Positions 28,422 to 63,771 of a stretch of DNA of 64,000 nucleotides are shown here, one piece after another. The notes beneath the pieces were generated by a model. It saw only the letters and a list, made by a program, of their open reading frames with translations. It was not told the DNA's origin and did no database searches. Both the position numbers and the translations under genes were made by a program. The stretch comes from an uncultured Flavobacteriaceae bacterium (lineage in GTDB: Bacteria > Bacteroidota > Bacteroidia > Flavobacteriales > Flavobacteriaceae). Numbering within the stretch: position 1 is the first letter of the stretch; each line of letters opens with the position of its first letter. The DNA lies in contig CANKUU010000002.1 in assembly GCA_947486785.1 (NCBI GenBank), positions 62,001 to 126,000 on the forward strand, given 5' to 3'.

Positions 28422-29744
28422 TTAGTTGATAAATTTCTTCAAGATATTCCAGATATCATTACCAAAGACTACAGCCATTAAGCCCATAACGATTACAAAG
28501 CCCACAATTTGCCCTCGTTCTAAAACTTTCTCACTAGGTGGTCTACCAGATATTATTTCGTACAACAAAAACATCACATGCCCACCATCAAGTGCAGGAA
28601 TAGGTAATAAGTTTACAAATGCTAACCAAATAGAAAAATAAGCAAGAAAACCCCAAAAGAAATCCCAGTCCCATGCGGTTGGCATCATTTCAACAATACC
28701 TATTGGCCCTTTTACTTGTTTATAGCCTTCGGTAGTTCGGTTAAAAATAATTTTAAACTGTCGCACTTGATCGGTAAGCACTTTTATCGTTTTGCTAAAA
28801 CCGGCAGGTATGGCGGCAAATAAACCATACCTATCTGTTACTCTTAAATCGGCAACGCTTGGGTATATACCCGCTTTCTTTTCATCTGATAGTTTAAGAT
28901 TAATGCGCTTTATACTGCCATTTCGCTCTACTTCTAAGTTAATAGTTTCATGAGGATCAAAACCCTGCATAATCGCAATAAAATCGCTGTAATAGGTAAC
29001 TTCTTTACCATTTACCGATTTAATTAAATCACCCGATTGAATACCCGCCTTTTCTGCCCCCGAATTTGGCTGCGTTTTTTCAACAATTGGACGCATACGA
29101 TACGACAAGAAATTGGCACCTTTATTGGCTAAAAAATCTTTCTTGCCTTCGTCTGCAATTTTAATGGTTACTTTTCTACCATCTCTATCAACCGTAATTT
29201 CATCTCCGAAAAGTATGTCTTTTGCAGCATCAGAAAATTTTACCGACTTTTCGCCGTCAATTGCTAAAATTTTATCTCCTGTTTGTAAACCCAGTTTTTG
29301 ACCCACTGAATCTACCAAAATACCATATTTTAAGCTATCTGCAGGTATATAGGTGTCGCCGTTACTAAAAAGAAGTGCTGCATAAATAAGCCAGGCCAGT
29401 AAGAAATTTACCGTTACACCACCCATCATAATAATTAAACGTTGCCAGGCAGGTTTGCTTCTAAATTCCCAAGGTTCGGGGTCTTTACTCATTTGCTCGG
29501 TATCCATACTCTCGTCAATCATACCAGAAATTTTGACGTACCCTCCTAAAGGCAACCAACCTATGCCCCACTCTGTTTCGCCTATCTGCTTTTTAAAAAG
29601 TGAAAACTTCCAATCAAAAAAGAGGTAGAATTTCTCTACTCTGGTTTTAAACCATTTTGCAGGCAGATAATGACCAAATTCATGTAAAATAACAAGAATG
29701 GAAATTATGAGAACAAAAGTTAATATTTGAATAATTAATTCCAT
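28422..29744 (-). CDS. rseP: RIP zinc metalloprotease RseP (site-2 protease)
   Basis: 440 residues. The intramembrane zinc site HEFGH is at 21-25 and the distal LPIPALDGGH motif is in the C-terminal membrane part (LDGG coordinates the zinc with Asp). A PDZ-containing periplasmic region in the middle has PNSGAEKAGIQSGDLI and an earlier partial repeat (GQKLGLQTGDKIL). Four membrane spans are expected. It cleaves membrane-bound anti-sigma or signal proteins after a site-1 cut. The minus-strand TACTTTTG at 29770-29777 is a possible -7 box upstream of the start. Confidence 0.95.
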   Translation of the reverse strand: MELIIQILTFVLIISILVILHEFGHYLPAKWFKTRVEKFYLFFDWKFSLFKKQIGETEWGIGWLPLGGYVKISGMIDESMDTEQMSKDPEPWEFRSKPAWQRLIIMMGGVTVNFLLAWLIYAALLFSNGDTYIPADSLKYGILVDSVGQKLGLQTGDKILAIDGEKSVKFSDAAKDILFGDEITVDRDGRKVTIKIADEGKKDFLANKGANFLSYRMRPIVEKTQPNSGAEKAGIQSGDLIKSVNGKEVTYYSDFIAIMQGFDPHETINLEVERNGSIKRINLKLSDEKKAGIYPSVADLRVTDRYGLFAAIPAGFSKTIKVLTDQVRQFKIIFNRTTEGYKQVKGPIGIVEMMPTAWDWDFFWGFLAYFSIWLAFVNLLPIPALDGGHVMFLLYEIISGRPPSEKVLERGQIVGFVIVMGLMAVVFGNDIWNILKKFIN

Positions 29745-50099: not shown

Positions 50100-50158
50100 T
50101 CAAGGATCAATCAAATCAGGTTTCTTACCTAATAATTTTACTATATAAACAGTAGATC

Positions 50159-50559
50159 ACCCCTAACATTAACCCAAGAGGGCTACACTATATTTCTTAT
50201 AAAAGACCAAAGTAAAAGCACCCAAGCTATGACCAAAATTATACCTCCTAAAGGGGTAATAGGACCTAAAAACCGCATTTTCTTGCCGCTAGACGCACTT
50301 AAAGTTAAGCCATAAATACTAAAGGAGAAAAGAAACGTGCCAAATACAAAGCAGTACATCATATACTGCTCTAAAACCGTACTAAAATTTAAATTAAAAC
50401 CAAGAACTAGTAGCACAAGCGCATGATACATTTGGTATTTTACCCCCGTTTCAAAGCTATTTAATTGCTCTTGAGAAAAAGACTTTTTTAACACGTGCGC
50501 ACCGAAAGCACCAAAAATTACGGCCAAAGCACCGTAGAGCGCACCCATGCATTGTGCGA
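50159..50559. repeat. 401-bp direct repeat, copy 1 (contains DUF423 gene)
   Basis: Identical to 57669-58069 except for 5 single-base differences, no indels. The two copies are direct and 7510 bp apart, flanking the second SusCD operon. Both outer junctions are sharp: sequences differ from the first base beyond the repeat on each side. Confidence 0.95.
50183..50548 (-). CDS. DUF423 membrane protein, copy 1 (5'-shortened)
   Basis: 121 residues, a small protein with about four hydrophobic spans: GALYGALAVIFGAFGAHVLKK at the N-terminus is the DUF423 signature (YgdD family, function unknown). Compared with the copy at 57693-58079 it has 2 residue differences and lacks the first 7 codons, because the repeat ends 11 bp upstream of its ATG and the native start is lost. 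Likely still translatable from the internal ATG, but the promoter is gone. Confidence 0.85.
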   Translation of the reverse strand: MGALYGALAVIFGAFGAHVLKKSFSQEQLNSFETGVKYQMYHALVLLVLGFNLNFSTVLEQYMMYCFVFGTFLFSFSIYGLTLSASSGKKMRFLGPITPLGGIILVIAWVLLLWSFIRNIV

Positions 50560-50842: not shown

Positions 50843-53800
50843 ATGAAAAAAAACTCAAAATACGGGGTATCCATTTCAGCTGTCCCGCAAGTCGATCTCA
50901 AAACTATATTATTAGTCTTCACGGCACTCCTCTTTCTAAATCAGGGGTTTGCATTTTCAACATTAAAAAATTCACTTACCACAATTAAATCAGTTTATCA
51001 AACTACTATTTCGGGTACCGTAATCGATGAGGATGGTATTCCTCTGGCTGGTGCCACCATAGTAGAAGTAGGAACAACGAATGGCGTATCAACCGATTTC
51101 GATGGAAATTATTACATCACATCCACTAGCGATTCGCCTTCGCTCGAATTCTCATACATAGGGTATGCTTCACAAACAATAGCAGTAAATGGCCGAACTA
51201 CCATAAACATTACCATGGCAGAAAATGCTAGTGAACTTGATGAAGTTGTAGTTACTGCCCTAGGAATTAAAAAAGAATCAAAGGCATTAGGCTATTCTGT
51301 TACAAAAGTAGATACAGAGCGTATTCTAGCAAGTGGCGCACCAGTAAATGCGGTACAATCTTTATATGGTACGGCAGCCGGAGTGCAAGTAGCCTCTACT
51401 GCTTCAGGTCCTTCTGGGGGTTTTAAAATTAATATTCGTAATGCTATTTCTTTTGACGAAAACTCAACTACCCGACCCTTAATTGTTGTTGACGGAATTC
51501 CCATTTTTGATGAGAATTCTAAAGTTACGTACAACGACAGAAACGGAAGAGACAATGGTACTGGAATTAATGATATTAACCCAGGTGATATTGCTTCAAT
51601 GGAAATATTAAAAGGAGCTAAAGCATCTGTTCTTTATGGAAGCGAAGGAGCTAACGGTGTAATATTAATTACTACAAAAAGCGGATCAAGAAGTAAAGGT
51701 TTAGGAATTTCCGCCTCATTAACCACCTCACTTGAACAAGCTGCCTTTACCGCGGACATACAAGACCAATATGGCTCTGGGCGTAGCCCAAGCATCTCTG
51801 CCAATGATGACCAAGGCTATTTTATTAATGATGCGGGTGAACGTGCATTAGATGTTTCAGGAACGGCTTTTGGTCCAAAATTTGACCCCAACGTTCAACT
51901 ACGCTGGTGGGACGGATCGTTACGACCTTGGCAGGCCACTCGTAGAGATGTATACGATCAGCTATTCAAGACAGGTTTTCAACAAACGGCCAATGTAGCA
52001 GTAAGTTCTGGAGGCGAAAGAGGTTCTGTTCGTTTTGGATATACTAATATGAACTACAATCCTATTATCAGAGGAGCTAAATACACCAAAAACACCTTTA
52101 GCATTAATGCTTCTTATGATTTAAACGATTATATTTCTGTGAAATATGTAAGCAATTATTTTTTATCTAATAATCTTAATTCGGCCTACGCTGGGTCTTT
52201 TGATTCACAAGGATCAAGAACAGGTTTAGGAGCGTATTCAAGAGACATTGATGTAGACCTTTTGCGAAGTGTTTTGGTAACCGAAAATGGATATAACTAT
52301 TTTCAAAATGAAGATCGAAGAAGAGATTTTATTTCGGCTGGTAGAGGGGCCATAGTAGGCTCTCTTTGGGACTGGACACAAAACGAATCTGATTTTGATA
52401 GAATTCACGGCATTCAGTCTTTAACTTTTAATTTAAAATTTAGCGATATTTTTAGTGCCACTTTAGTTGGTGGTATAGACAATACAACAGAAAGAAATGT
52501 TTTTAAAGGAAAATTACAAGACCCTAGCTTAATAGGACCAAATAGCGGTTCTGTTTTCAGGGATGAAAATCGTATTATACGAAGAAGTTATACACAAGCA
52601 ACTTTTAATTTTGATACCAATTTCAAAGATTTGGGTTTTTCTGGTTTCGCAGGTGCTGTATATAGAGATAATCGATTTGAGGTTAAAGGCGCTGAAAAAA
52701 TTGGAGGTTTTGTTATACCTAACTTCTTTTCGTTTTCTAATCTTCCTTCTGGCGTTAACCCTACAGCAATTGTAGATAATGGTAGAGATGTACTTTATGG
52801 TCTAATGGGCTCTATGCAACTTGATTGGAAGGGGCAAGTTTATATTGAAGCTCAGGCACGCCAAGATTGGTCATCCATTTTACCTCCTAATAACAATACT
52901 TATTTCTACCCTGGGGTAAGTGCCACTTGGATTGCTTCTAGCTCATTAAACTTACCAAAAGCCGTAAAATTCTTAAAACTAAGAACTTCTTGGGCTGATG
53001 TAGGTAGACCAGGACCACTCTATTTTAGTAACGTAAATTTAGGCGTTTCACAATCTGGAAACGGTTTTATTCTTTCGCCTCCTGATGATCTTCCTCCGAT
53101 TGACGCTGAATTTGTTCCTAATTTAAAGCCAGAACGTAAACGCGAATTTGAAGTAGGACTAGAAGGCTATTTCTTTGAAAATCAAAGACTAGGAATAGAT
53201 TTATCTGTATATCATGCAAATACCTATGATCAGATTATGAAAATTACAGCTCCTCCAGGACTTGGTGTTCGAAATGTGCGAATTAATGCAGGAGATGTAG
53301 CAAATACAGGTTGGGAATTAGCATTAAAAACTAAGCCTATTTTTAGCGAAGATTTTCAATGGAATCTAAACATGACCTTTGCCTCAAGCAAAACCAAAGT
53401 AATAAGGCTTGATGACGAACTTACTTCACTTTCCCTGTTTAGTGGTAACGGACTTAATGTAGTAGCTGAAGTAGGAGGAGAATACGGTCAAATTATACAG
53501 CAACAAGGTTGGCAAAACTATATCAATCCATCCGATGATAACGACCCTAACAATGGTAAGCGAATTGTTGATCGAAATGGGCAACGATATAGCTACTCAA
53601 GGCAAAGCAATAAATTGGTTGGAAAACTTTTACCCGATCTTACTGGAGGTATCTTCAACAAGTTCAACTATAAAAATTTCAGTTTAACCGCTAATATTGA
53701 CTATTCGTTTGGAGCAACCTTTATCAATGAAGCCGAGGCCTATTTGTTGGCATCTGGTACTTTAAAAGAGAGCTTACAGTATAGAGACGCTGCAAATGGC

Positions 53801-54244
53801 GGTTTGCCATACCACTTAAATGATGAGGGTGCTAAAATTGCAGGTGCCAATCCAAACAACGGAGCAACTTTTAATGACGGCGTATTATTAGATGGAGTAT
53901 ATGCTGATGGAACGCCGAATACGCAAATTTCTTCCGCACAAGACTATTATTCAGCTTCGTATTTTTCAAATGGCTTTTTTCCCGAAGATCGTCTGTTCAA
54001 AAGTGATTATGTAGCGTTACGAAATGTATCTATAGATTATAGAATTCCTGAATTTTCAAAACAAATAGGATTGCACGATATCGTGGTTTCCTTATTTGCA
54101 AACAATCTTGCATACCTTTATAAAGCTGCCCCTAATACCATTCCTGAATCGGCAAACGGTACAGGATGGTCTGATGGCGCTTTCGGTTCAACCGCTTTGC
54201 CTTCTCAAAGATCTTTTGGTCTGTCGGTAAAAGCCAAATTATAA
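50843..54244 (+). CDS. SusC/RagA family TonB-dependent outer-membrane transporter
   Basis: 1133 residues. An unusually long N-terminus (about 55 residues, hydrophobic stretch TILLVFTALLFLNQGFAFS) precedes the carboxypeptidase-like domain (ISGTVIDEDGIPLAGATIVE, TDFDGNYYI). VVVTALGIKKESKALGYSV leads into the plug (RPLIVVDGIPIFDE, LKGAKASVLYGSEGANGVILITTKSG) and the barrel ends SFGLSVKAKL. With the SusD-like lipoprotein 17 bp downstream it forms a complete importer. It lies inside the DUF423-flanked insertion. No enzyme genes accompany it, so the substrate cannot be guessed. Confidence 0.94.
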   Translation: MKKNSKYGVSISAVPQVDLKTILLVFTALLFLNQGFAFSTLKNSLTTIKSVYQTTISGTVIDEDGIPLAGATIVEVGTTNGVSTDFDGNYYITSTSDSPSLEFSYIGYASQTIAVNGRTTINITMAENASELDEVVVTALGIKKESKALGYSVTKVDTERILASGAPVNAVQSLYGTAAGVQVASTASGPSGGFKINIRNAISFDENSTTRPLIVVDGIPIFDENSKVTYNDRNGRDNGTGINDINPGDIASMEILKGAKASVLYGSEGANGVILITTKSGSRSKGLGISASLTTSLEQAAFTADIQDQYGSGRSPSISANDDQGYFINDAGERALDVSGTAFGPKFDPNVQLRWWDGSLRPWQATRRDVYDQLFKTGFQQTANVAVSSGGERGSVRFGYTNMNYNPIIRGAKYTKNTFSINASYDLNDYISVKYVSNYFLSNNLNSAYAGSFDSQGSRTGLGAYSRDIDVDLLRSVLVTENGYNYFQNEDRRRDFISAGRGAIVGSLWDWTQNESDFDRIHGIQSLTFNLKFSDIFSATLVGGIDNTTERNVFKGKLQDPSLIGPNSGSVFRDENRIIRRSYTQATFNFDTNFKDLGFSGFAGAVYRDNRFEVKGAEKIGGFVIPNFFSFSNLPSGVNPTAIVDNGRDVLYGLMGSMQLDWKGQVYIEAQARQDWSSILPPNNNTYFYPGVSATWIASSSLNLPKAVKFLKLRTSWADVGRPGPLYFSNVNLGVSQSGNGFILSPPDDLPPIDAEFVPNLKPERKREFEVGLEGYFFENQRLGIDLSVYHANTYDQIMKITAPPGLGVRNVRINAGDVANTGWELALKTKPIFSEDFQWNLNMTFASSKTKVIRLDDELTSLSLFSGNGLNVVAEVGGEYGQIIQQQGWQNYINPSDDNDPNNGKRIVDRNGQRYSYSRQSNKLVGKLLPDLTGGIFNKFNYKNFSLTANIDYSFGATFINEAEAYLLASGTLKESLQYRDAANGGLPYHLNDEGAKIAGANPNNGATFNDGVLLDGVYADGTPNTQISSAQDYYSASYFSNGFFPEDRLFKSDYVALRNVSIDYRIPEFSKQIGLHDIVVSLFANNLAYLYKAAPNTIPESANGTGWSDGAFGSTALPSQRSFGLSVKAKL

Positions 54245-54261
54245 TTTTAAAAAATAGTACT

Positions 54262-56253
54262 ATGAAAAATTTATGTATTAAATTCACTTTATCGTGCTTG
54301 ATACTATTAAGTACAATAGGTTGTCAAGACCAATTAGAAGAATTGTATCAAGACCCTGACGGCTTTTCTAAAAGCCAAGCAGATGACGCTGGTGTAAGTA
54401 TTATAGCAGGTTATTTCACCTCACAGCTAACGCGTGGCTTCTTGCTACGTGGAGACTATGCTTCGCACTACCATCAGCTCAGAAGTGGTTCACGAGTTAT
54501 GGGAACTGGTGTTCAATTATATTTCACCTCAAATACACAAGGTGTTCCCTACACTCTAAGAGATGTAGAGAATGATTGGGGTTCAAATGGTTTTAACCAA
54601 TCGGTTTTTAATAATTTAAATAGCCCATGGATTAAACAAGTACTTTGGGGACAAAAAGAATTCAACAAAATTCCAGAGGCAGAACGCACTCAGCTCGATG
54701 TACTATTCATGAGACTATTACATGTTTTAAAAGCCTATGCCTATCAACGTGGAATAGATGGTTATGATGAAGTACCCTATTTTCCAACAGGTTCTGCAGG
54801 TGCCCTTGAAGGAGAAAAAGCAGAATTTTTAGGACAAGAACAAATATACCCTATCATCATAGAAGAATTAGGAGAAATAGAAACCTTTCTTTCCACGGTT
54901 GAATTAAATGCAACTGAACAAACAATATTTCAAAATCAAGATGTAATTTTTAATGGAAGTTTATTGCAGTGGCGAAAGTACATTAACTCGCTTCGTTTAC
55001 GTTGGGCCATGACAGTAAGTGAACAATTACCTGAACTTACTACAGCAACAGTTAATGATCTAATTGATAAGCCACTCTTTACGGAGGCTTCAGATGTTGC
55101 AGGTTTGGCTGATATTGCTATAGTTGAACCAAATCGTTTACAAGTTGAACTCGGTATCACTAGAGCATTTAGAGAACGTGGTGATGAAAGTAGAGCTCCA
55201 AAACGTTATTTAGAAGATGTAATGCATTGCATTCCCACAGAAAAGAGTATCGTAATAAATGGCGAAACCCTACTTTATTTCGACGGTGACAATTCAGAAG
55301 AAGGCTTAGAAAACGGTACTGTTGATCCACGAGTTGCGTATCTATTCTCAAAAGATATTATGGGCAGATACATTGGAGCAGAGACTGGTTTCGATAATGG
55401 TAATGACCCTAATAGCTACCTCAATAAAACAATGAGGGCTTATTATATCAACCATCCCATTATGACCGATTTAAGCGTAACTGAAATTTCTTTTGGTACA
55501 GACGCAAATGAACAGGTTATAAGACTAGACGAAGAAGCTGCAGCTGATCTTTCTAAGCGAGAAGAATTTTTATTGAATGCATTTAGAGATTATATTGGTA
55601 ATTATAGAGACACCAATTATACCATAGGTACAGACAACAACCTAATTTCAGAATTTAATACTAGACCACAATACAACTTTGATCTTAGATATCCTACCTT
55701 ACATGCCGTTGAAACTGAACTTTCCTTGGCAGAGGCTGCGGTAAGGGGTTTTGGAGATCCTGGTTCGGCACGTGATCACTACGCAAAGGCCATTGAACTA
55801 TCTTGTAAATACTGGTACGCCATAAATGTAGAAAATAGCTATTCTAAACAAACGGTGCCTTCTTTCCCAAGCACTATGGATCAATCAAGAATTGACCGAG
55901 ATAAGCCAAGAAAAGAGTATAATGCCATGGCTTATGCTGAATTTGAAGCACAACGTTTTGATGGATTATCTGACCAAGAAAAAGTGAGGTCTATTTTTAA
56001 TCAATTACAGCTACATTATAATATGTTTAATTTTGAAACGCCATGGACAGCAGCACGTCGATTAGTGAAATATCTTGGCGACAACCCTGGTTCACCCTAT
56101 GAAATTTTTCAATGGAAAGAGCGATTTCTTTACAACCCTAGCATTCAAGCAACAGACCCTGAAGCATGGGCACGCTTAAGCCAGCATGACGACCCTAATT
56201 TACCCTTATGGTTTACAGGCCGTACCGCAAAATGGAAAAACGTATTAGAATAA
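54262..56253 (+). CDS. SusD/RagB-like surface lipoprotein (large form)
   Basis: 663 residues, larger than the usual 480-600. Lipobox ILLSTIGCQDQ places the lipidated Cys near 21. The SusD-like segments include QWRKYINSLRLRWAMT, YPTLHAVETELSLAEAAVRGFG and ARDHYAKAIELSCKYW. It is the binding partner of the SusC transporter encoded 17 bp upstream. A small lipoprotein follows after 19 bp. Confidence 0.9.
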   Translation: MKNLCIKFTLSCLILLSTIGCQDQLEELYQDPDGFSKSQADDAGVSIIAGYFTSQLTRGFLLRGDYASHYHQLRSGSRVMGTGVQLYFTSNTQGVPYTLRDVENDWGSNGFNQSVFNNLNSPWIKQVLWGQKEFNKIPEAERTQLDVLFMRLLHVLKAYAYQRGIDGYDEVPYFPTGSAGALEGEKAEFLGQEQIYPIIIEELGEIETFLSTVELNATEQTIFQNQDVIFNGSLLQWRKYINSLRLRWAMTVSEQLPELTTATVNDLIDKPLFTEASDVAGLADIAIVEPNRLQVELGITRAFRERGDESRAPKRYLEDVMHCIPTEKSIVINGETLLYFDGDNSEEGLENGTVDPRVAYLFSKDIMGRYIGAETGFDNGNDPNSYLNKTMRAYYINHPIMTDLSVTEISFGTDANEQVIRLDEEAAADLSKREEFLLNAFRDYIGNYRDTNYTIGTDNNLISEFNTRPQYNFDLRYPTLHAVETELSLAEAAVRGFGDPGSARDHYAKAIELSCKYWYAINVENSYSKQTVPSFPSTMDQSRIDRDKPRKEYNAMAYAEFEAQRFDGLSDQEKVRSIFNQLQLHYNMFNFETPWTAARRLVKYLGDNPGSPYEIFQWKERFLYNPSIQATDPEAWARLSQHDDPNLPLWFTGRTAKWKNVLE

Positions 56254-56272
56254 ACAATATTAAAATTACAAT

Positions 56273-56614
56273 ATGAAAAGAATATCTTTTTTAATCATCT
56301 CACTTATTATAATGGCATCTTGCAGTAAAGATGACCAAGGTTCAATTTTTGGAACAGCAAGTGCAGATAATGAGAATGTACTATCGGGAATTACCGTAAA
56401 ATTATATACTGAAGACACCACCTTAATTTCAACAACTACCACAGATGCAGAAGGAAATTTCTCCTTCTCTGGACTTGAATCTGGCAATTATTTTATTGGT
56501 GCTACAATCACCATAGAACAAGAAATATGGGATACAGGAAACACCCCTCAAATTCTATATGTAGGAGATGAAATTGCTAAGGAGGTTGCTTTAACATTAA
56601 CAAAAAAAGAATGA
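56273..56614 (+). CDS. Small lipoprotein with SdrD-B/carboxypeptidase-regulatory-like fold
   Basis: 113 residues. Lipobox MASCSKDD near residue 17 (Cys). The mature part is a single beta sandwich: GTASADNENVLSGITVKLYTEDTT, TDAEGNFSFSGLESGNYFIGATI. Third gene of the SusCD operon, 19 bp after SusD. It is likely an accessory surface lipoprotein of the complex (SusE/F position, but unrelated in sequence). Confidence 0.75.
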   Translation: MKRISFLIISLIIMASCSKDDQGSIFGTASADNENVLSGITVKLYTEDTTLISTTTTDAEGNFSFSGLESGNYFIGATITIEQEIWDTGNTPQILYVGDEIAKEVALTLTKKE

Positions 56615-57560: not shown

Positions 57561-57668
57561 TCAACCCTTGACTAATTTTGAGCAATAAATTTAAATAAAC
57601 TCTCAAAAAAGGTCGAGCATCTACAACTACTCTAAGCCCAGTAATTTTGATGTGTAAGTAACAATAAC

Positions 57669-58069
57669 ACCCCTAACATTAACCCAAGAGGGCTACACTA
57701 TATTTCTTATAAAAGACCAAAGTAAAAGCACCCAAGCTATGACCAAAATTATACCTCCTAAAGGGGTAATAGGACCTAAAAACCGCATTTTCTTGCCGCT
57801 AGACGCACTTAAAGTTAAGCCATAGATACTAAAGGAGAAAAGAAACGTGCCAAATACAAAGCAGTACATCATATACTGCTCTAAAACCGAACTAAAATTT
57901 AAATTAAAACCAAGAATTAGTAGCACAAGCGCATGATACATTTGGTATTTTACCCCCGTTTCAAAGCTATTTAATTGCTCTTGAGAAAAAGACTTTTTTA
58001 ACACGTGCGCACCAAAAGCACCAAAAATTACGGCCAAAGCCCCGTAGAGCGCACCCATGCATTGTGCGA
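57669..58069. repeat. 401-bp direct repeat, copy 2
   Basis: Partner of 50159-50559 (5 mismatches). This copy is probably the original, since the DUF423 gene keeps its native 5' end and its neighbour at 58158. Confidence 0.95.
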
Positions 58070-58983: not shown

Positions 58984-59133
58984 TTAAAAAATAGCGCTAG
59001 TTAATAAAATTGAAACTTGAATAACCGTAAAAACGGCCAAGCCAATTAAAAAATTGTGGTAATTATTTGTTATCCTGTTAATTTCAGCGTTGTGTTTAAT
59101 TTGAATAAGTTCAAATCGTTTGGCGTTACTCAT
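58984..59133 (-). CDS. 49-residue single-span membrane peptide, paralogue 1
   Basis: ATG at 59131-59133, stop at 58984-58986, exactly 49 residues. The first 24 residues are polar and charged (MSNAKRFELIQIKHN, then AEINRITNNYH). Residues 27-48 form one hydrophobic span, LIGLAVFTVIQVSILLTSAIF ending the protein. It aligns without gaps with two other 49-residue frames at 59703 and 60698; the shared core is INxxYxNFLI then FTxIQxSILLTSAI. It is the most diverged of the three. Function unknown. Too short for usual cut-offs; length conservation and gap-free similarity across three loci argue that it is a real gene. Confidence 0.75.
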   Translation of the reverse strand: MSNAKRFELIQIKHNAEINRITNNYHNFLIGLAVFTVIQVSILLTSAIF

Positions 59134-59509
59134 TTGGGTGCGGTTTAGGTTTGGGTTACGTTAAATAATTTTAAAAATTTAGTTCTCTACCTTATTTATG
59201 TACTAAACAGGTTACTACGTCAACAAAAAAACAGCTGTCAAAAAAAATTAAACTCTTTGTAAGCTTATACTTAACGCTGGTAAAGATATATTATTACACG
59301 TTTAACAACAAAAAAATTCGATTAACAGCACTTTTTATTAAAAAAATTGTTAACAAGTGCCTGTTATTAACAATTAAGCGCCGATGATGGGTATAAAAAA
59401 TAGTTAAAGATTTAAAATCAAAACCTTACCTAAGCCTTATTTATTGGTGTATAAATTTAATATAGCTTGCTAGTAAGAAGAGCTAATTGGTTTAAAAATG
59501 TTATAAAAA

Positions 59510-59538
59510 AAATCGCTGAGGAATTTTCTCAGCGATTT
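59510..59538. terminator. Strong bidirectional terminator after small peptide gene 2
   Basis: Perfect 11-bp arms AAATCGCTGAG and CTCAGCGATTT around a 7-nt loop, A-run on one side and T-run on the other. It ends the minus-strand transcript of the 59703 gene, leaving a 3' leader-like tail of about 165 nt. Confidence 0.8.
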
Positions 59539-59702
59539 TTTATGCCTAAATCAAAGCAATACTTTTTGTAATATGACCTCTAAATATGGGGTATTTTTTG
59601 GATCTATATCATAAAAATATCGTGCGTATCATTTTTGATTATTTAAAATTATAGACGCTAACCTATAATGAAATCTAACTCCTTAATTACAATTAAGGTA
59701 AT

Positions 59703-59852
59703 TTAGTAAATAGCACTTGTAAGTAGGATTGATAGTTGTATGATTGTAAAGAAACCAATAAAAATTAAAAAGTTATTATACTGGTTTGTTATATTAATAA
59801 TGTCTTTATTATTTTCTAATTGAACAATGTGGGACTCTTTTTGCGTGTTCAT
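59703..59852 (-). CDS. 49-residue single-span membrane peptide, paralogue 2
   Basis: ATG at 59850-59852, stop at 59703-59705, 49 residues. N-terminal half MNTQKESHIVQLENNKDI, then ITNQYNNFLI and the span FIGFFTIIQLSILLTSAIY to the C-terminus. Compared with paralogue 3 it shares most residues and also its flanks: a block of upstream sequence ending CGAAATATT before the ATG, and a downstream block (ATTATAGACGCTAACCTAT) at almost the same distance from the stop (49 versus 50 bp). So a unit of about 0.4 kb was duplicated and both coding parts stayed open. A small tail-anchored or holin-like peptide is suggested; type I toxin is a hypothesis only. Confidence 0.8.
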   Translation of the reverse strand: MNTQKESHIVQLENNKDIINITNQYNNFLIFIGFFTIIQLSILLTSAIY

Positions 59853-60492
59853 AATATTTCGTTTCCGTTATTCATAGATAAAACAATCAACCGCTAAAAA
59901 TTCCTGAAATTATTGTGCTTTTTTTTTAAAAAATACGGGTTAAACTATGGGGATACTACTACTCTTTATAAGAACAAAAGCAAAGATGATATAGCTCGTA
60001 GGCAACCACTTACAAAACAAGCTATAGCCGTATGATTAATAAGACCAACTTCAATAAACCGCTGTAAACCGTACTTTAGATATATTTACCTTTGGTTTAA
60101 GCTGAAGCCAAAAAAAATATCATATTTACCATATAAATAACCCCTTGTTTTGCGAAAATTAGTAGATCTTCCATTTTTTACTCGCAAATTTTATTGAGAA
60201 AACTGCCCGGTTTTAGCAAAAGAACATAGCGCAAAGAAAATAATAATACCAATTTATATAAGCGTTCCTTATATACCAGCCTAATGATTGATTTCTGCAG
60301 CTCTTTAAAATGAGATCTAAATTGGTATTGTAACACTTCACTTGCAACCTATTTATCTGAAAATAAATGTTACCCTTAATACTCAGATATACCTTTTCTT
60401 AAAACAAGAACTATGTGCTATTTAAAAAAAGTTGTTGGCAACCAGTAGTTTGTTGCTCTAATAGCATAGAAATAGTAGTACCTACTAAACGC
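59853..60492. other. Gene-free spacer between the two duplicated peptide units
   Basis: About 640 bp without a credible coding frame. It holds the conserved 5' flank of the 59703 gene (59853-59925) and the inverted-repeat element at 60245-60329. Confidence 0.5.
60245..60329. repeat. 85-bp element with 12-bp perfect terminal inverted repeats
   Basis: AATACCAATTTA at 60245-60256 and TAAATTGGTATT at 60318-60329 are exact inverse copies bordering an 85-bp segment without a gene. This is the form of a miniature inverted-repeat or REP-like element; only one copy is seen in the window. Confidence 0.5.
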
Positions 60493-60495
60493 AAA

Positions 60496-60524
60496 AAATC
60501 GCTAAAGCTATACTTCAGCGATTT
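60496..60524. terminator. Terminator after small peptide gene 3
   Basis: Arms AAATCGCT and AGCGATTT with partly paired interior and A/T runs on both sides, the counterpart of 59510-59538, about 174 bp beyond the stop of the 60698 gene. Confidence 0.65.
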
Positions 60525-60697
60525 TTGATATCAAAATCAAATTAAATGGACTTTATTTTTGATGATATGACAACTAAATTTGGGCTTTTATTTGTCTTCT
60601 AGCAAAAATATGGTGGTGCCTGTGTTTTTTGATTCATAAAAATTATAGACGCTAACCTATATTGAAATCTAAACCTATAAAGAAGGACTAGAATACT

Positions 60698-60847
60698 TTA
60701 AAAAATAGCACTTGTAAGTAGGATTGATAGTTGTATGATTGTAAACGAACCAATAAAAATTAAAAAATTATTATAGTGGTTCTCTATTTTAACAATGTCT
60801 TTATTTGTTCTTAATTGAAAACTGTGGGACTCTTTATTGATTTTCAT
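60698..60847 (-). CDS. 49-residue single-span membrane peptide, paralogue 3
   Basis: ATG at 60845-60847, stop at 60698-60700, 49 residues. N-terminal half MKINKESHSFQLRTNKDI, then IENHYNNFLI and the span FIGSFTIIQLSILLTSAIF. The differences from paralogue 2 are concentrated in the polar half, while the last 19 residues differ at only 2 positions. That is a pattern of selection on the membrane part. Upstream and downstream flanks are conserved with paralogue 2. Transcribed alone from its own leader, it ends at the hairpin 60496-60524. Confidence 0.8.
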   Translation of the reverse strand: MKINKESHSFQLRTNKDIVKIENHYNNFLIFIGSFTIIQLSILLTSAIF

Positions 60848-61254
60848 AATATTTCGCTTTCACGTTACATCCATAAAACAATTAACAGATAAAAACTCCT
60901 GAAAAAAATATGCCTTTTTTTACAATAAACCATTTTTATCTCAAGTATTTAAATATCAAGTGTTTAAATGTAAAAAAAGACCATTTTTAAAGGTCAGTTT
61001 ATGCTTACAAAATCGCTTAAATTTATGCTGATTATCAGATAAAATACATCAAATAGCTACCAAATGTAGTACTAGCAAAATCAGACAAAATTTGAGTAAT
61101 TTTTACTAAAAAATATTAAAATCTTGAAAAAAAATACATCGGCACCAATTATCGCTACTAAAAAGCTGTAAAAAAGATTAAAAAACTTGTTGTATCGTTC
61201 GGTATACCAAGGCTAAAAAAGCTGTTTATCACCTAAAATTTAACCAAACTACGG
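60848..61254. other. Gene-free stretch, peptide leader and TonB-gene terminator
   Basis: Contains the conserved leader of the 60698 gene (to about 60925) and, at 60979-60995, the terminator-like hairpin for the downstream end of the receptor gene. Nothing else is seen. Confidence 0.5.
60979..60995 (-). terminator. Possible terminator of the TonB receptor gene
   Basis: GACC and GGTC arms with an AT loop; the adjoining A-run reads as U-run on the minus strand. 260 bp beyond the stop of the receptor gene. Confidence 0.4.
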
Positions 61255-63771
61255 CTAAAAGATATATTTAAATGATGCATTTGGAGTTATACGTAATGAG
61301 TTTTGCTCTACTTTCTTAATTTGATCCTCATCATCTAACCTATAAAAAGTATGTAAGGTATTTTTTCTATTGAGTACATTTAGTATCGACAAGCCTATTT
61401 CAACTTTTTTGTTTTTAGCAAAATTAAATTGATAGGTACTAGACAAATCTAAGCGCAGGTAATCTTCTTGCCTGCTGGTATTACTAGTATCAAAATTGAT
61501 GATGCCATTAATCACTTCTTGCCCTTCTACTGGCCTTGTAAAAGGTCTTCCTGTTCGCCAGTTTAATCCGGTAGCAAAAATTAGGTCGTTTAAAGAGTAA
61601 CTTGCGCCAAAAGTAACGGTATGGGTTACATCATAATTATTAGGAAATGCTTGCGCTAAAAGTTCTTTAAAAATATACTTGCTTCTAAGAAAAGAATAGC
61701 TGATCCAAGTATTGGTGTTTTTCCAGCGTTTTCGCGTTAGCACATCAATACCAATTGCATCATAAGATCCACTCGTCTTTGCAAATTCAAATTGATCTTG
61801 AAAACCTTGGCTCTGTGCCGTAATTCCGTTTACTCTTTTAAAATATGTTTCAGCATTTATCAACCATTTGTTTCTACTATAACTGAGCCCTAATGATGCT
61901 TGCTTACTTCTTATTACCGGAATAGTTTTATTGTCTGCTATTTGCCAGCGTCGTTTTTCTACACCTAAAAAGTCACTTTGAAAATTAATAATTTGCGAAA
62001 TATTCTGATGCTTAAACTCGCCAAGAGCTTCTACCTTAAAGTACTTTAAAAACTTATAGTTTAAACTAAATCGAGGTTCCCATATTTGGGTATTAAACTT
62101 ATCTAAATAGTTGTGTCGCAAACCTATATTTACAAACAGTAGTTTATTTAAAGCCCATTTAATTTCACTAAAAACACCATAGGTACGCAATACTTTACTT
62201 TCGTAAAAAAGGTATTGAGGTCGATCTACATCATCAAGATTATTTATTTGGGTTTCTACTAAATGGTACCCGTTAATCCAATGTACTTGAGGTGAAAGTT
62301 CTAAATCTCCTAAAAACTTAAAGCTAGTTTCTGAAACGGTATTCTTTTGTAAAAATCGCTGATTTTTAAGAATGTTCGCGTTAATACCCTTTAGCTGATA
62401 CTCACTTTCGTAAATAGAAAGTTCTGATCTAAATTTTTCAGACCAAGTTCTTTGATATTTTAAGCTTGCCGCAGTACTATTTTGGTTTAAACTACTTTCT
62501 TTAACTTCTTCTGCCCCATTAACCTCTTCTCTTTCGTTAAAGACCAAGGCGTTGGCGGTTTGAATAAAATTTAACTGAAATCTATCTTTATTAGAAGGTT
62601 GGTATAAGGCTCGAAAAGAAGCATCATAAAAGTCAAAATCAATTCCTGAATTAATGACATTAACTACATGATTTTCTATTTCGGTATTTTGAGCGATACG
62701 ATTAAAATATTCACCATACGTGGGGGTATCTATAAAATCGCTAATTGATTTTCGTGCTGCTACTTGTAATGAAGCTTTTTTACTAATGGGTACATCTACA
62801 AAACCATTAACATCCAAAAAATTTACCCCAATATTACCTTTTAACTTTTTATTGATAAATTTATCTGTAGTCATGGCTATTGTGCCCGAAACACCATCGG
62901 TTTCGGCAGCACTAGTTCCGTTTTTATAAAGCTCAACTTTTTGGGTAATATTAGAGTTATACATCGATATTAAACCAAAAAAATGACCCGATTGATACAT
63001 TTTAATGCCGTCCCAAGAAATCAAATTTTGATCATTACTACCTCCTCTAATATTAATATTTGAAACCGTTTCATCAATACTGTGTATGCCCGCAAAAGAT
63101 TGAACACCATGCAATACATCTTTGTCTATAAGACCAGGAAGTAAACGCATTTTATTTAATTTTAATTGAAACGCACCATTGTCTAATTTATCAACACCTT
63201 GGGTTAAATAGTCATAAACGACTATTTCAGATAATTGCTCGTAATTTGGGTCTAAATAAATTGCTTTACAATCGGCAGAAAGCTCAAAATTATTCGCTTG
63301 TCTTGAAAGTGTTTTGTGGCCGATATGTCGAATTCGGATGAGATCCTCATCAGAAGAAATAGCAATTTCAAAATAGCCTTCTTCGTTTGATATAACGCCT
63401 TTGTTGCCATTTTGTATGGTTACAAAAGGTAATACTTCTTTGGTATATCTATCTTTTATATAGCCGCAAAGTATCTTTTCTTTGTTTTTAATGGAGATGA
63501 TTTTATCAGAAATAAAGACAAAATCTAAGTTTGATTGCGCACCTAAATCTGAAACAATTTCTTTTATTGGTGCTGATCTAGTGCTATAGTTTACGGTAAC
63601 ACTATCTACTAAAGTTGAGGCATAATTAAACTGAACGCTATACTGAGCTTGCAATTCTGTTAACACATTTGATAAACGTTTTTTAACAGCATTACTTTCT
63701 TGAGCGAAGGTGCAATTACATATACATAGTAGTGTAATTGTGAGGAGCGGGACATTAAACTTCTTATTCAC
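61255..63771 (-). CDS. TonB-dependent receptor with STN domain (FecA-type signalling)
   Basis: 838 residues from GTG 63769-63771. A signal peptide (LLTITLLCICNCTFAQE) is followed by a secretin/TonB N-terminal (STN) domain at about 35-95 (LTELQAQYSVQFNYAS, IVSDLGAQSNLDFVF). A carboxypeptidase-like domain (YIKDRYTKEVLPFVTIQNG, GVISNEEGYFEIAI), a plug (NINIRGGSNDQNLISWDGIKMY) and a barrel ending ASFKYIF follow. The start overlaps the FecR-like gene by 8 bp, so the receptor is co-translated with an anti-sigma and belongs to a FecIR-type cell-surface signalling system. Confidence 0.88.
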   Translation of the reverse strand: MNKKFNVPLLTITLLCICNCTFAQESNAVKKRLSNVLTELQAQYSVQFNYASTLVDSVTVNYSTRSAPIKEIVSDLGAQSNLDFVFISDKIISIKNKEKILCGYIKDRYTKEVLPFVTIQNGNKGVISNEEGYFEIAISSDEDLIRIRHIGHKTLSRQANNFELSADCKAIYLDPNYEQLSEIVVYDYLTQGVDKLDNGAFQLKLNKMRLLPGLIDKDVLHGVQSFAGIHSIDETVSNINIRGGSNDQNLISWDGIKMYQSGHFFGLISMYNSNITQKVELYKNGTSAAETDGVSGTIAMTTDKFINKKLKGNIGVNFLDVNGFVDVPISKKASLQVAARKSISDFIDTPTYGEYFNRIAQNTEIENHVVNVINSGIDFDFYDASFRALYQPSNKDRFQLNFIQTANALVFNEREEVNGAEEVKESSLNQNSTAASLKYQRTWSEKFRSELSIYESEYQLKGINANILKNQRFLQKNTVSETSFKFLGDLELSPQVHWINGYHLVETQINNLDDVDRPQYLFYESKVLRTYGVFSEIKWALNKLLFVNIGLRHNYLDKFNTQIWEPRFSLNYKFLKYFKVEALGEFKHQNISQIINFQSDFLGVEKRRWQIADNKTIPVIRSKQASLGLSYSRNKWLINAETYFKRVNGITAQSQGFQDQFEFAKTSGSYDAIGIDVLTRKRWKNTNTWISYSFLRSKYIFKELLAQAFPNNYDVTHTVTFGASYSLNDLIFATGLNWRTGRPFTRPVEGQEVINGIINFDTSNTSRQEDYLRLDLSSTYQFNFAKNKKVEIGLSILNVLNRKNTLHTFYRLDDEDQIKKVEQNSLRITPNASFKYIF

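What the first reader, a model, noticed from the sequence alone, without database searches (positions are those of the whole stretch)
58984..60847. Family of three 49-residue single-span membrane peptides in an apparent gene desert
Three minus-strand frames (58984-59133, 59703-59852, 60698-60847) are each exactly 49 residues, start with ATG, and align without gaps. The shared pattern is INxxYxNFLI followed by FTxIQxSILLTSAI[FY] at the extreme C-terminus. In copies 2 and 3 the 5' leader, a 3' block about 50 bp past the stop, and a hairpin terminator about 170 bp past the stop are also conserved. The polar N-terminal halves vary while the membrane span is nearly fixed. The size, hydrophobicity, tandem copies and long structured UTRs recall type I toxins, holin-like or regulatory membrane peptides. 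None of these is shown, and I know of no described family with this ending.
Basis: partly seen in the sequence, partly recalled or inferred. Interest (0 to 1): 0.78.

Follow-up and report, generated by a model that had tools for sequence, protein, structure and literature searches.

The report
Sigma-controlled 49-residue membrane peptides
Three tiny unannotated genes encode 49-residue inner-membrane peptides of a new family that sits beside, and carries the same switch-on signal as, a cell-surface sensing system of marine flavobacteria, so they are probably a new small-protein part of that signalling system rather than a toxin.

Summary
Three 49-codon ATG frames exist at the stated places, and related peptides (47-50 aa, one C-terminal membrane span, near-invariant mid-span Gln) occur in 14 other genomes of at least six flavobacterial genera. 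dN/dS of about 0.25 between close Cellulophaga orthologues shows they are real proteins.

The family belongs to an ECF sigma / FecR anti-sigma / TonB-receptor (TBDR) locus; window 61255-63771 is the receptor. In every other genome the peptide lies immediately 3' of the orthologous receptor. The 'conserved 5' leader' is a promoter, TCAGGA-N15-TTGTTNTA. This genome (3.57 Mb) has five exact sites: peptides c2 and c3, anti-sigma+TBDR, the divergent lipoprotein, and an M6 protease. The same promoter precedes anti-sigma and/or lipoprotein in most TBDR orthologues, including those without the peptide. A matrix trained only on loci outside the peptide clade ranks c3 and c2 first and second in the window. 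Peptide-positive receptors form one clade with no observed loss.

So these are almost certainly sigma-regulon small membrane proteins. Feedback on the anti-sigma/intramembrane-proteolysis step is my preferred but untested function. Toxin and holin readings are disfavoured.

The parts
60698..60847 (-). peptide copy c3, 49 aa, tail-anchored membrane peptide, ECF promoter present
59703..59852 (-). peptide copy c2, 49 aa, ECF promoter present
58984..59133 (-). peptide copy c1, 49 aa, diverged, no recognisable ECF promoter (matrix score -22.9)
60874..60902 (-). ECF-type promoter of c3: TCAGGAGTTTTTATCTGTTAATTGTTTTA, ATG 55 nt from its first base
   Evidence: score 27.9, best site of the window
59879..59907 (-). 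ECF-type promoter of c2: TCAGGAATTTTTAGCGGTTGATTGTTTTA, ATG 55 nt from its first base
   Evidence: score 22.4, second best site of the window
60493..60527 (-). intrinsic terminator downstream of c3 (approximate ends)
   Evidence: z -4.12
59504..59541 (-). intrinsic terminator downstream of c2 (approximate ends)
   Evidence: z -5.95
60556..60921 (-). duplicated unit (promoter + peptide + 3' UTR), copy 3
   Evidence: 80% identical to 59563-59926
59563..59926 (-). duplicated unit, copy 2
61255..63771 (-). TonB-dependent receptor/transducer with N-terminal FecR_C/STN-like signalling region, 838 aa; upstream on the contig beyond the window: FecR-type anti-sigma (L040 5765-6679) and ECF sigma (L040 6723-7247), then divergent lipoprotein (L040 7362-8453)

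Best explanation
The three frames are genes for small tail-anchored inner-membrane proteins of a cell-surface signalling (FecI/FecR/TonB-receptor-like) system. Supported by sequence evidence here: (1) they are translated-type genes under purifying selection; (2) they belong to a family that tracks one clade of a TonB receptor encoded with its own ECF sigma and FecR-type anti-sigma; (3) at least one copy per genome is preceded by the promoter that also precedes the anti-sigma/receptor and lipoprotein genes, so the locus's own ECF sigma very probably switches the peptide on when the receptor senses its ligand. Inferred: the ~27 N-terminal polar residues face the cytoplasm and one continuous helix anchors the C-terminus in the inner membrane; the mid-span Gln packs against another membrane helix. 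Inferred and less sure: the peptide feeds back on the signalling step in that membrane, by binding the anti-sigma's span or by occupying the site-2 protease (RseP) that cuts it, and so tunes or shuts off the response, as MgrB does for PhoQ. I put points 1-3 at about 0.92 and the feedback step, given these, at about 0.45-0.5; the stated confidence is for the whole sentence.
For: Coding: dN/dS 0.23-0.25 (G404 vs G438 a and b copies), dS saturated with dN 0.22-0.43 for G449/G450 and c1 vs c2/c3. Linkage: next to the orthologous receptor in G404, G438, G440, G432, G143, G384, G449, G450, G447 and in named loci of Pelagihabitans, Flagellimonas, Muricauda and others, with different genes on the far side. 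Promoter: same 29-mer upstream of peptide, anti-sigma and lipoprotein; exactly five exact sites in the 3.57-Mb genome, four of them in this locus; the same set in 8 relatives, with few background sites; fixed geometry, ATG 50-63 nt from the site's first base. Independent test: a matrix from 108 anti-sigma/lipoprotein sites outside the peptide clade puts c3 and c2 first and second in the 64-kb window (27.9, 22.4) against a maximum of 13.9 over 515,646 other positions. Phylogeny: all 12 peptide-positive receptors in one 14-tip clade; the two other tips are contigs that end before the receptor's 3' end; 0 of 70 outside. Structure: AlphaFold single helix 3-48, pLDDT about 88-96 from residue 21 on; mid-span Gln in 20 of 21 peptides. 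Function by analogy: a 47-aa peptide made under PhoP control that inhibits PhoQ (PMC2789325); RseP cuts FecR and 14 small membrane proteins (PMC8144685, PMC10470546).
Against: No expression data. No sequence similarity between the peptide and the anti-sigma, and no test of interaction was possible. Most receptors of this family have no such peptide (0 of 70 outside the clade), so the signalling system works without one. A response effector would have the same promoter and linkage. c1 and the other second copies lack the promoter.
Confidence: 0.45

Rival explanations
1. Same regulon, different job: the peptide is an output of the response, for instance an accessory subunit that stabilises or tunes an inner-membrane complex (TonB-ExbBD, a transporter for the imported ligand, or the secretion route of co-regulated proteins).
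For: Promoter and linkage fit equally well. Other regulon members look like outputs: M6 protease in this genome, stand-alone receiver protein in Croceitalea/Flagellimonas. Tandem amplification in three lineages fits a dosage-dependent subunit.
Against: No partner membrane complex is encoded at the locus; the gene is kept next to the receptor although its other neighbours change.
Confidence: 0.35
2. Type I toxin or other self-toxic membrane peptide (TisB/Hok-like), silenced by an antisense RNA.
For: Length, hydrophobicity, tandem copies; convergent orientation to the receptor gene in other genomes could give antisense pairing.
Against: In the window the peptides are co-directional with the receptor, so that antisense is not conserved; ATG lies only 10-28 nt after the modelled site, leaving no long structured 5' leader; 3' UTR unstructured apart from the terminator; no scattered distribution; no PADLOC match.
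Confidence: 0.07
3. Holin or other phage-derived lysis peptide.
For: Only size and a single span.
Against: No phage genes nearby, no IMG/VR relative, no PHROGs match.
Confidence: 0.01
4. The conserved unit acts as an RNA (sRNA under ECF control) and the frame is incidental.
For: Short transcript with its own promoter and terminator.
Against: Codon-position bias and dN/dS below 0.5 in close non-window pairs; UTRs are not conserved between genera while frame, length and mid-span Gln are; no Rfam match.
Confidence: 0.04
5. c1 only: a decaying copy, since it lacks the promoter.
For: Promoter matrix score -22.9 and no sigma-A -7/-33 match just upstream.
Against: Frame intact, length kept, synonymous sites saturated versus c2/c3 while 25 of 49 residues are kept; promoter-less second copies are also kept intact in three Cellulophaga species with low dN/dS.
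Confidence: 0.15

Closest known systems
FecI/FecR/FecA-type cell-surface signalling (ECF sigma, single-pass anti-sigma, TonB receptor with signalling domain)
   Same: Gene order sigma - anti-sigma - receptor, FecR and FecR_C domains, FecR_C/STN-like N-terminal region in the receptor, promoter shared by anti-sigma/receptor and other targets
   Different: No small membrane peptide is mentioned in the review read (PMC9249621: no hit for 'small protein'); extra divergent lipoprotein; the promoter lies between sigma and anti-sigma, so the sigma gene itself is not behind it
MgrB (47-aa PhoP-regulated inhibitor of PhoQ; PMC2789325)
   Same: Size, single span, inner membrane (inferred here), produced under control of the signalling system it is tied to
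   Different: No sequence relation found; partner here would be an anti-sigma or site-2 protease, not a histidine kinase; span at the extreme C-terminus; feedback not shown
E. coli small membrane proteins cut by RseP, incl. HokB (PMC10470546)
   Same: Single-span, about 50 residues, hence candidate site-2 protease substrates/competitors
   Different: No cleavage data; no homology; no evidence for toxicity
Type I toxins (TisB, Hok, Ldr class)
   Same: Small hydrophobic peptide, tandem copies
   Different: ECF promoter, receptor linkage, no conserved antisense arrangement

Membership tests
ECF-sigma regulon of a FecI/FecR/TBDR signalling locus | Locus encodes ECF sigma, FecR-type anti-sigma and a TonB receptor with a signalling domain | tested here: met
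   Sigma70_r2/r4, FecR, FecR_C, TonB barrel and plug domains; receptor N-terminal domain only weakly matched (FecR_C E 0.007)
ECF-sigma regulon of a FecI/FecR/TBDR signalling locus | Target gene carries the promoter motif shared by the other targets | tested here: met
   c2, c3 and 14 promoter-bearing relatives; c1 and four other second copies do not
ECF-sigma regulon of a FecI/FecR/TBDR signalling locus | Transcription depends on the sigma | not testable with these tools
   needs RNA-seq in a sigma mutant
MgrB-type feedback membrane peptides | Sequence membership in the MgrB (YobG) family | tested here: not met
   no Pfam match above 1e-2 and no NCBIfam match for the peptides tested
MgrB-type feedback membrane peptides | Regulated by and acting on the same signalling system | tested here: inconclusive
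   regulated-by part supported by promoter; acting-on part not testable
Type I toxin | Short hydrophobic peptide with a membrane span | tested here: met
Type I toxin | Conserved antisense RNA gene | tested here: inconclusive
   no sigma-A promoter with -33 and -7 boxes on the opposite strand of the peptide region in a simple scan; orientation to the receptor differs between genomes; RNA data needed
Type I toxin | Toxic when expressed | not testable with these tools
   needs induction assay
Holin | Phage lysis cassette or homology to phage holins | tested here: not met

The most novel reading that the evidence does not exclude
A dedicated, sigma-induced transmembrane peptide is an extra component of FecI/FecR-type transenvelope signalling in Bacteroidota, acting by helix-helix contact (conserved Gln) on the anti-sigma or on the site-2 protease. 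It would be a small-protein brake or gain control on regulated intramembrane proteolysis.
Probability: 0.35. Interest if true: 0.78.

Novelty: new variant of a known kind. Interest (0 to 1): 0.64.

Why it matters
Bacteroidota run many TonB-receptor/anti-sigma/ECF-sigma circuits whose promoters and targets are mostly unknown. Here sequence comparison gives a specific promoter for one widespread circuit, a short list of targets in one genome, and a new family of targets too small to be caught by the protein-family libraries searched. If the peptide acts on the anti-sigma or its protease, it would be a small-protein regulator of cell-surface signalling of a kind I know of no described example of, with laboratory-tractable hosts (Cellulophaga baltica, Flagellimonas). 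It also shows how a promoter can reveal the role of an orphan peptide.

Tried and rejected
Hits dropped as chance: G238 (frame antisense inside a ROK-family gene) and all other relatives with E > 3e-4 and partial matches or stops. No relatives in IMG/VR; no PLSDB match to the c2-c3 DNA; none in genome contigs with the three window copies alone. My first promoter pattern had one N too many (16-nt spacer): it found no site at this locus and only background (92 vs 76 control), which in hindsight is a negative control for spacing. Rfam gave only sub-threshold noise. Sigma-70 and terminator consensus scans are at shuffle level. Peptide versus anti-sigma profile comparison found nothing. PDB sequence search with the peptide profile: noise only. 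The AlphaFold model of the divergent lipoprotein has a C-terminal lipocalin-like beta-barrel (residues ~238-362, best Z 10.0, 88-91 residues, rmsd 2.4-2.5); it did not reveal the ligand. The random-window null is inflated because those loci contain true sites; one search replaces it. Paper searches found no description of such a peptide; the library holds open-access papers only.

Full report
1. Observation. The three minus-strand frames (58984-59133, 59703-59852, 60698-60847) are exactly 49 codons with ATG starts and align without gaps. c2 and c3 are a recent duplicate: 80% identical DNA over about 370 bp including both UTRs, each ending in a strong intrinsic terminator. c1 shares only the protein: 57-59% DNA identity, 51% protein identity, substitutions concentrated at third positions. 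No Pfam or NCBIfam family matches.

2. It is a real family. With growing models the family reached 21 copies in 15 genomes: this one, four Cellulophaga-genus genomes, G143, four genomes of the Croceitalea-like genus g195, Pelagihabitans pacificus, Flagellimonas meridianipacifica, a Muricauda MAG and two other Flavobacteriaceae. Length is 47-50 aa, one span from about residue 28 to the end, and a Gln at the middle of the span in 20 of 21. Close orthologues evolve under purifying selection: dN/dS 0.25 and 0.23 for G404 versus G438 copies a and b; G449/G450 have 64% identical protein with saturated synonymous sites. c2 versus c3 itself gives dN/dS 0.94 on few changes, so purifying selection is shown by the family, not by that pair. 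AlphaFold gives one continuous helix 3-48. Profiles find nothing in PHROGs, PADLOC, Pfam or PDB.

3. Context. Just upstream of the peptides in the window is an 838-aa TonB-dependent receptor with carboxypeptidase-like and N-terminal FecR_C/STN-like regions; on the contig beyond the window follow a FecR-type anti-sigma, an ECF sigma and a divergent lipoprotein. In all 14 other genomes the peptide is immediately 3' of, and convergent with, the orthologous receptor, with a different gene on its other side in each genus examined; in the window it is co-directional, 0.4 kb downstream. In a tree of 84 receptors all 12 peptide-positive ones fall in one clade (SH-aLRT 95 without the long-branched L202, 87 with it); the only two clade members scored negative (L182, L206) are contigs that stop before the receptor's 3' end, and none of the 70 outside has it (with contig ends). 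A family-wide search with the final model found strong hits only at this locus. One gain and no observed loss is the simplest history. Tandem amplification happened separately in this genome (3), in Cellulophaga (2) and in L175 (2).

4. Promoter. Alignment of peptide upstream regions from all genera showed TTTTTCAGGAGTTTTT-N-GTTGTTTTAT. The same element precedes the divergent lipoprotein and the anti-sigma gene. With the pattern TCAGGANNTTTN10TTGTTNTA the 3.57-Mb genome has exactly five perfect sites: c2, c3, anti-sigma(-receptor), lipoprotein, and an M6 metalloprotease gene; the one-mismatch sites I inspected point to no clear target and at least two lie in coding sequence. In eight relatives the same element sits before the peptide in each, and before anti-sigma and lipoprotein in most, with 0-2 control matches per genome. 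It lies before the anti-sigma in most of 30 receptor orthologues and before lipoprotein and/or anti-sigma in most of 80 named loci, including those without the peptide, so it is the older promoter of this sigma lineage and the peptide was added to the regulon. To avoid circularity I trained a matrix on 108 anti-sigma/lipoprotein sites outside the peptide clade: in the window, both strands, the two best positions are those of c3 (27.9) and c2 (22.4); the next, 13.9, equals the maximum over 515,646 null positions. First copies in all genomes score 19 to 37; the five second copies (c1, three Cellulophaga a copies, L175b) score -19 or less. The modelled site ends 10-28 nt before ATG, mostly 20. 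That this sigma itself reads the promoter is inferred from autoregulation-like placement and co-occurrence; it was not tested.

5. What it does. Supported here: real gene, membrane peptide, one locus, one regulon. Inferred: orientation N-in/C-out, and helix packing through the Gln. In FecR-type systems the anti-sigma is a single-pass protein cut in the membrane by RseP to activate the sigma (PMC9249621, PMC8144685), and E. coli RseP also cuts many small single-span proteins (PMC10470546). A sigma-induced tail-anchored peptide in the same membrane could bind the anti-sigma or compete for the protease, giving feedback, as MgrB does in PhoQ/PhoP (PMC2789325). I prefer this (whole statement 0.45), with a response-effector role as close rival (0.35). 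The window genome has an M50 RseP-type protease at 28422-29744, but so would most bacteria.

6. Holin: no phage context or homology. Type I toxin: the antisense geometry is not conserved, the 5' leader is short, and the distribution is tied to one receptor clade; toxicity itself is untested.

7. Novelty. The system is of a known kind (ECF/FecR/TonB-receptor signalling); the peptide is an undescribed component as far as the libraries and open-access papers searched show, hence 'new variant of a known kind'. Weak points: no expression data, function by analogy, L202 is a remote member (E 0.048; no Gln) accepted for its position and promoter, and L181's promoter has two mismatches.

Noticed in passing
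50148-50559 and 57660-58069: 412-bp direct repeat, 98% identical: a second, shorter copy of a DUF423 gene; the two copies bracket the SusC/SusD-like genes 50843-56614, as if that block had been inserted by recombination.
   Followed up: partly
L158, L144, L167 (Cellulophaga-genus genomes): The same ECF promoter, exact match, precedes a conserved basic 45-aa frame (MKPNKNLQFPHRG...FYWR) away from the locus in three species: perhaps a second small regulon protein.
   Followed up: partly
L174, L178, L183, L206: ECF promoter-like site before a 142-aa stand-alone receiver-domain protein near the lipoprotein gene in Croceitalea/Flagellimonas.
   Followed up: partly
L127 1501-1529 and 1588 onward (G000:C3:140386): Fifth exact ECF site of the genome drives a secreted M6-family metalloprotease (PF05547 1.9e-24), suggesting proteolysis as part of the response.
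   Followed up: partly
L040 7362-8453; L173 1780-2916 and others: Divergent lipoprotein family without Pfam match, occurring as about 356, 474 or 594 aa (steps of about 118 aa suggest repeats), with a lipocalin-like C-terminal barrel by AlphaFold.
   Followed up: partly
L234 (Winogradskyella bathintestinalis): Two motif-like sites (2 mismatches each) each precede a small soluble frame (57 and 45 aa) of similar sequence, at the place of the lipoprotein gene.
   Followed up: no
L086 9791-10423 (also G404, G440): A PycTM (Pycsar effector-like) membrane protein gene flanks the peptide pair in Cellulophaga.
   Followed up: no
13530-13704/15452-15625 and 15602-15646/28245-28289: Further short direct repeats in the window, 93% and 98% identical, not identified.
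   Followed up: no
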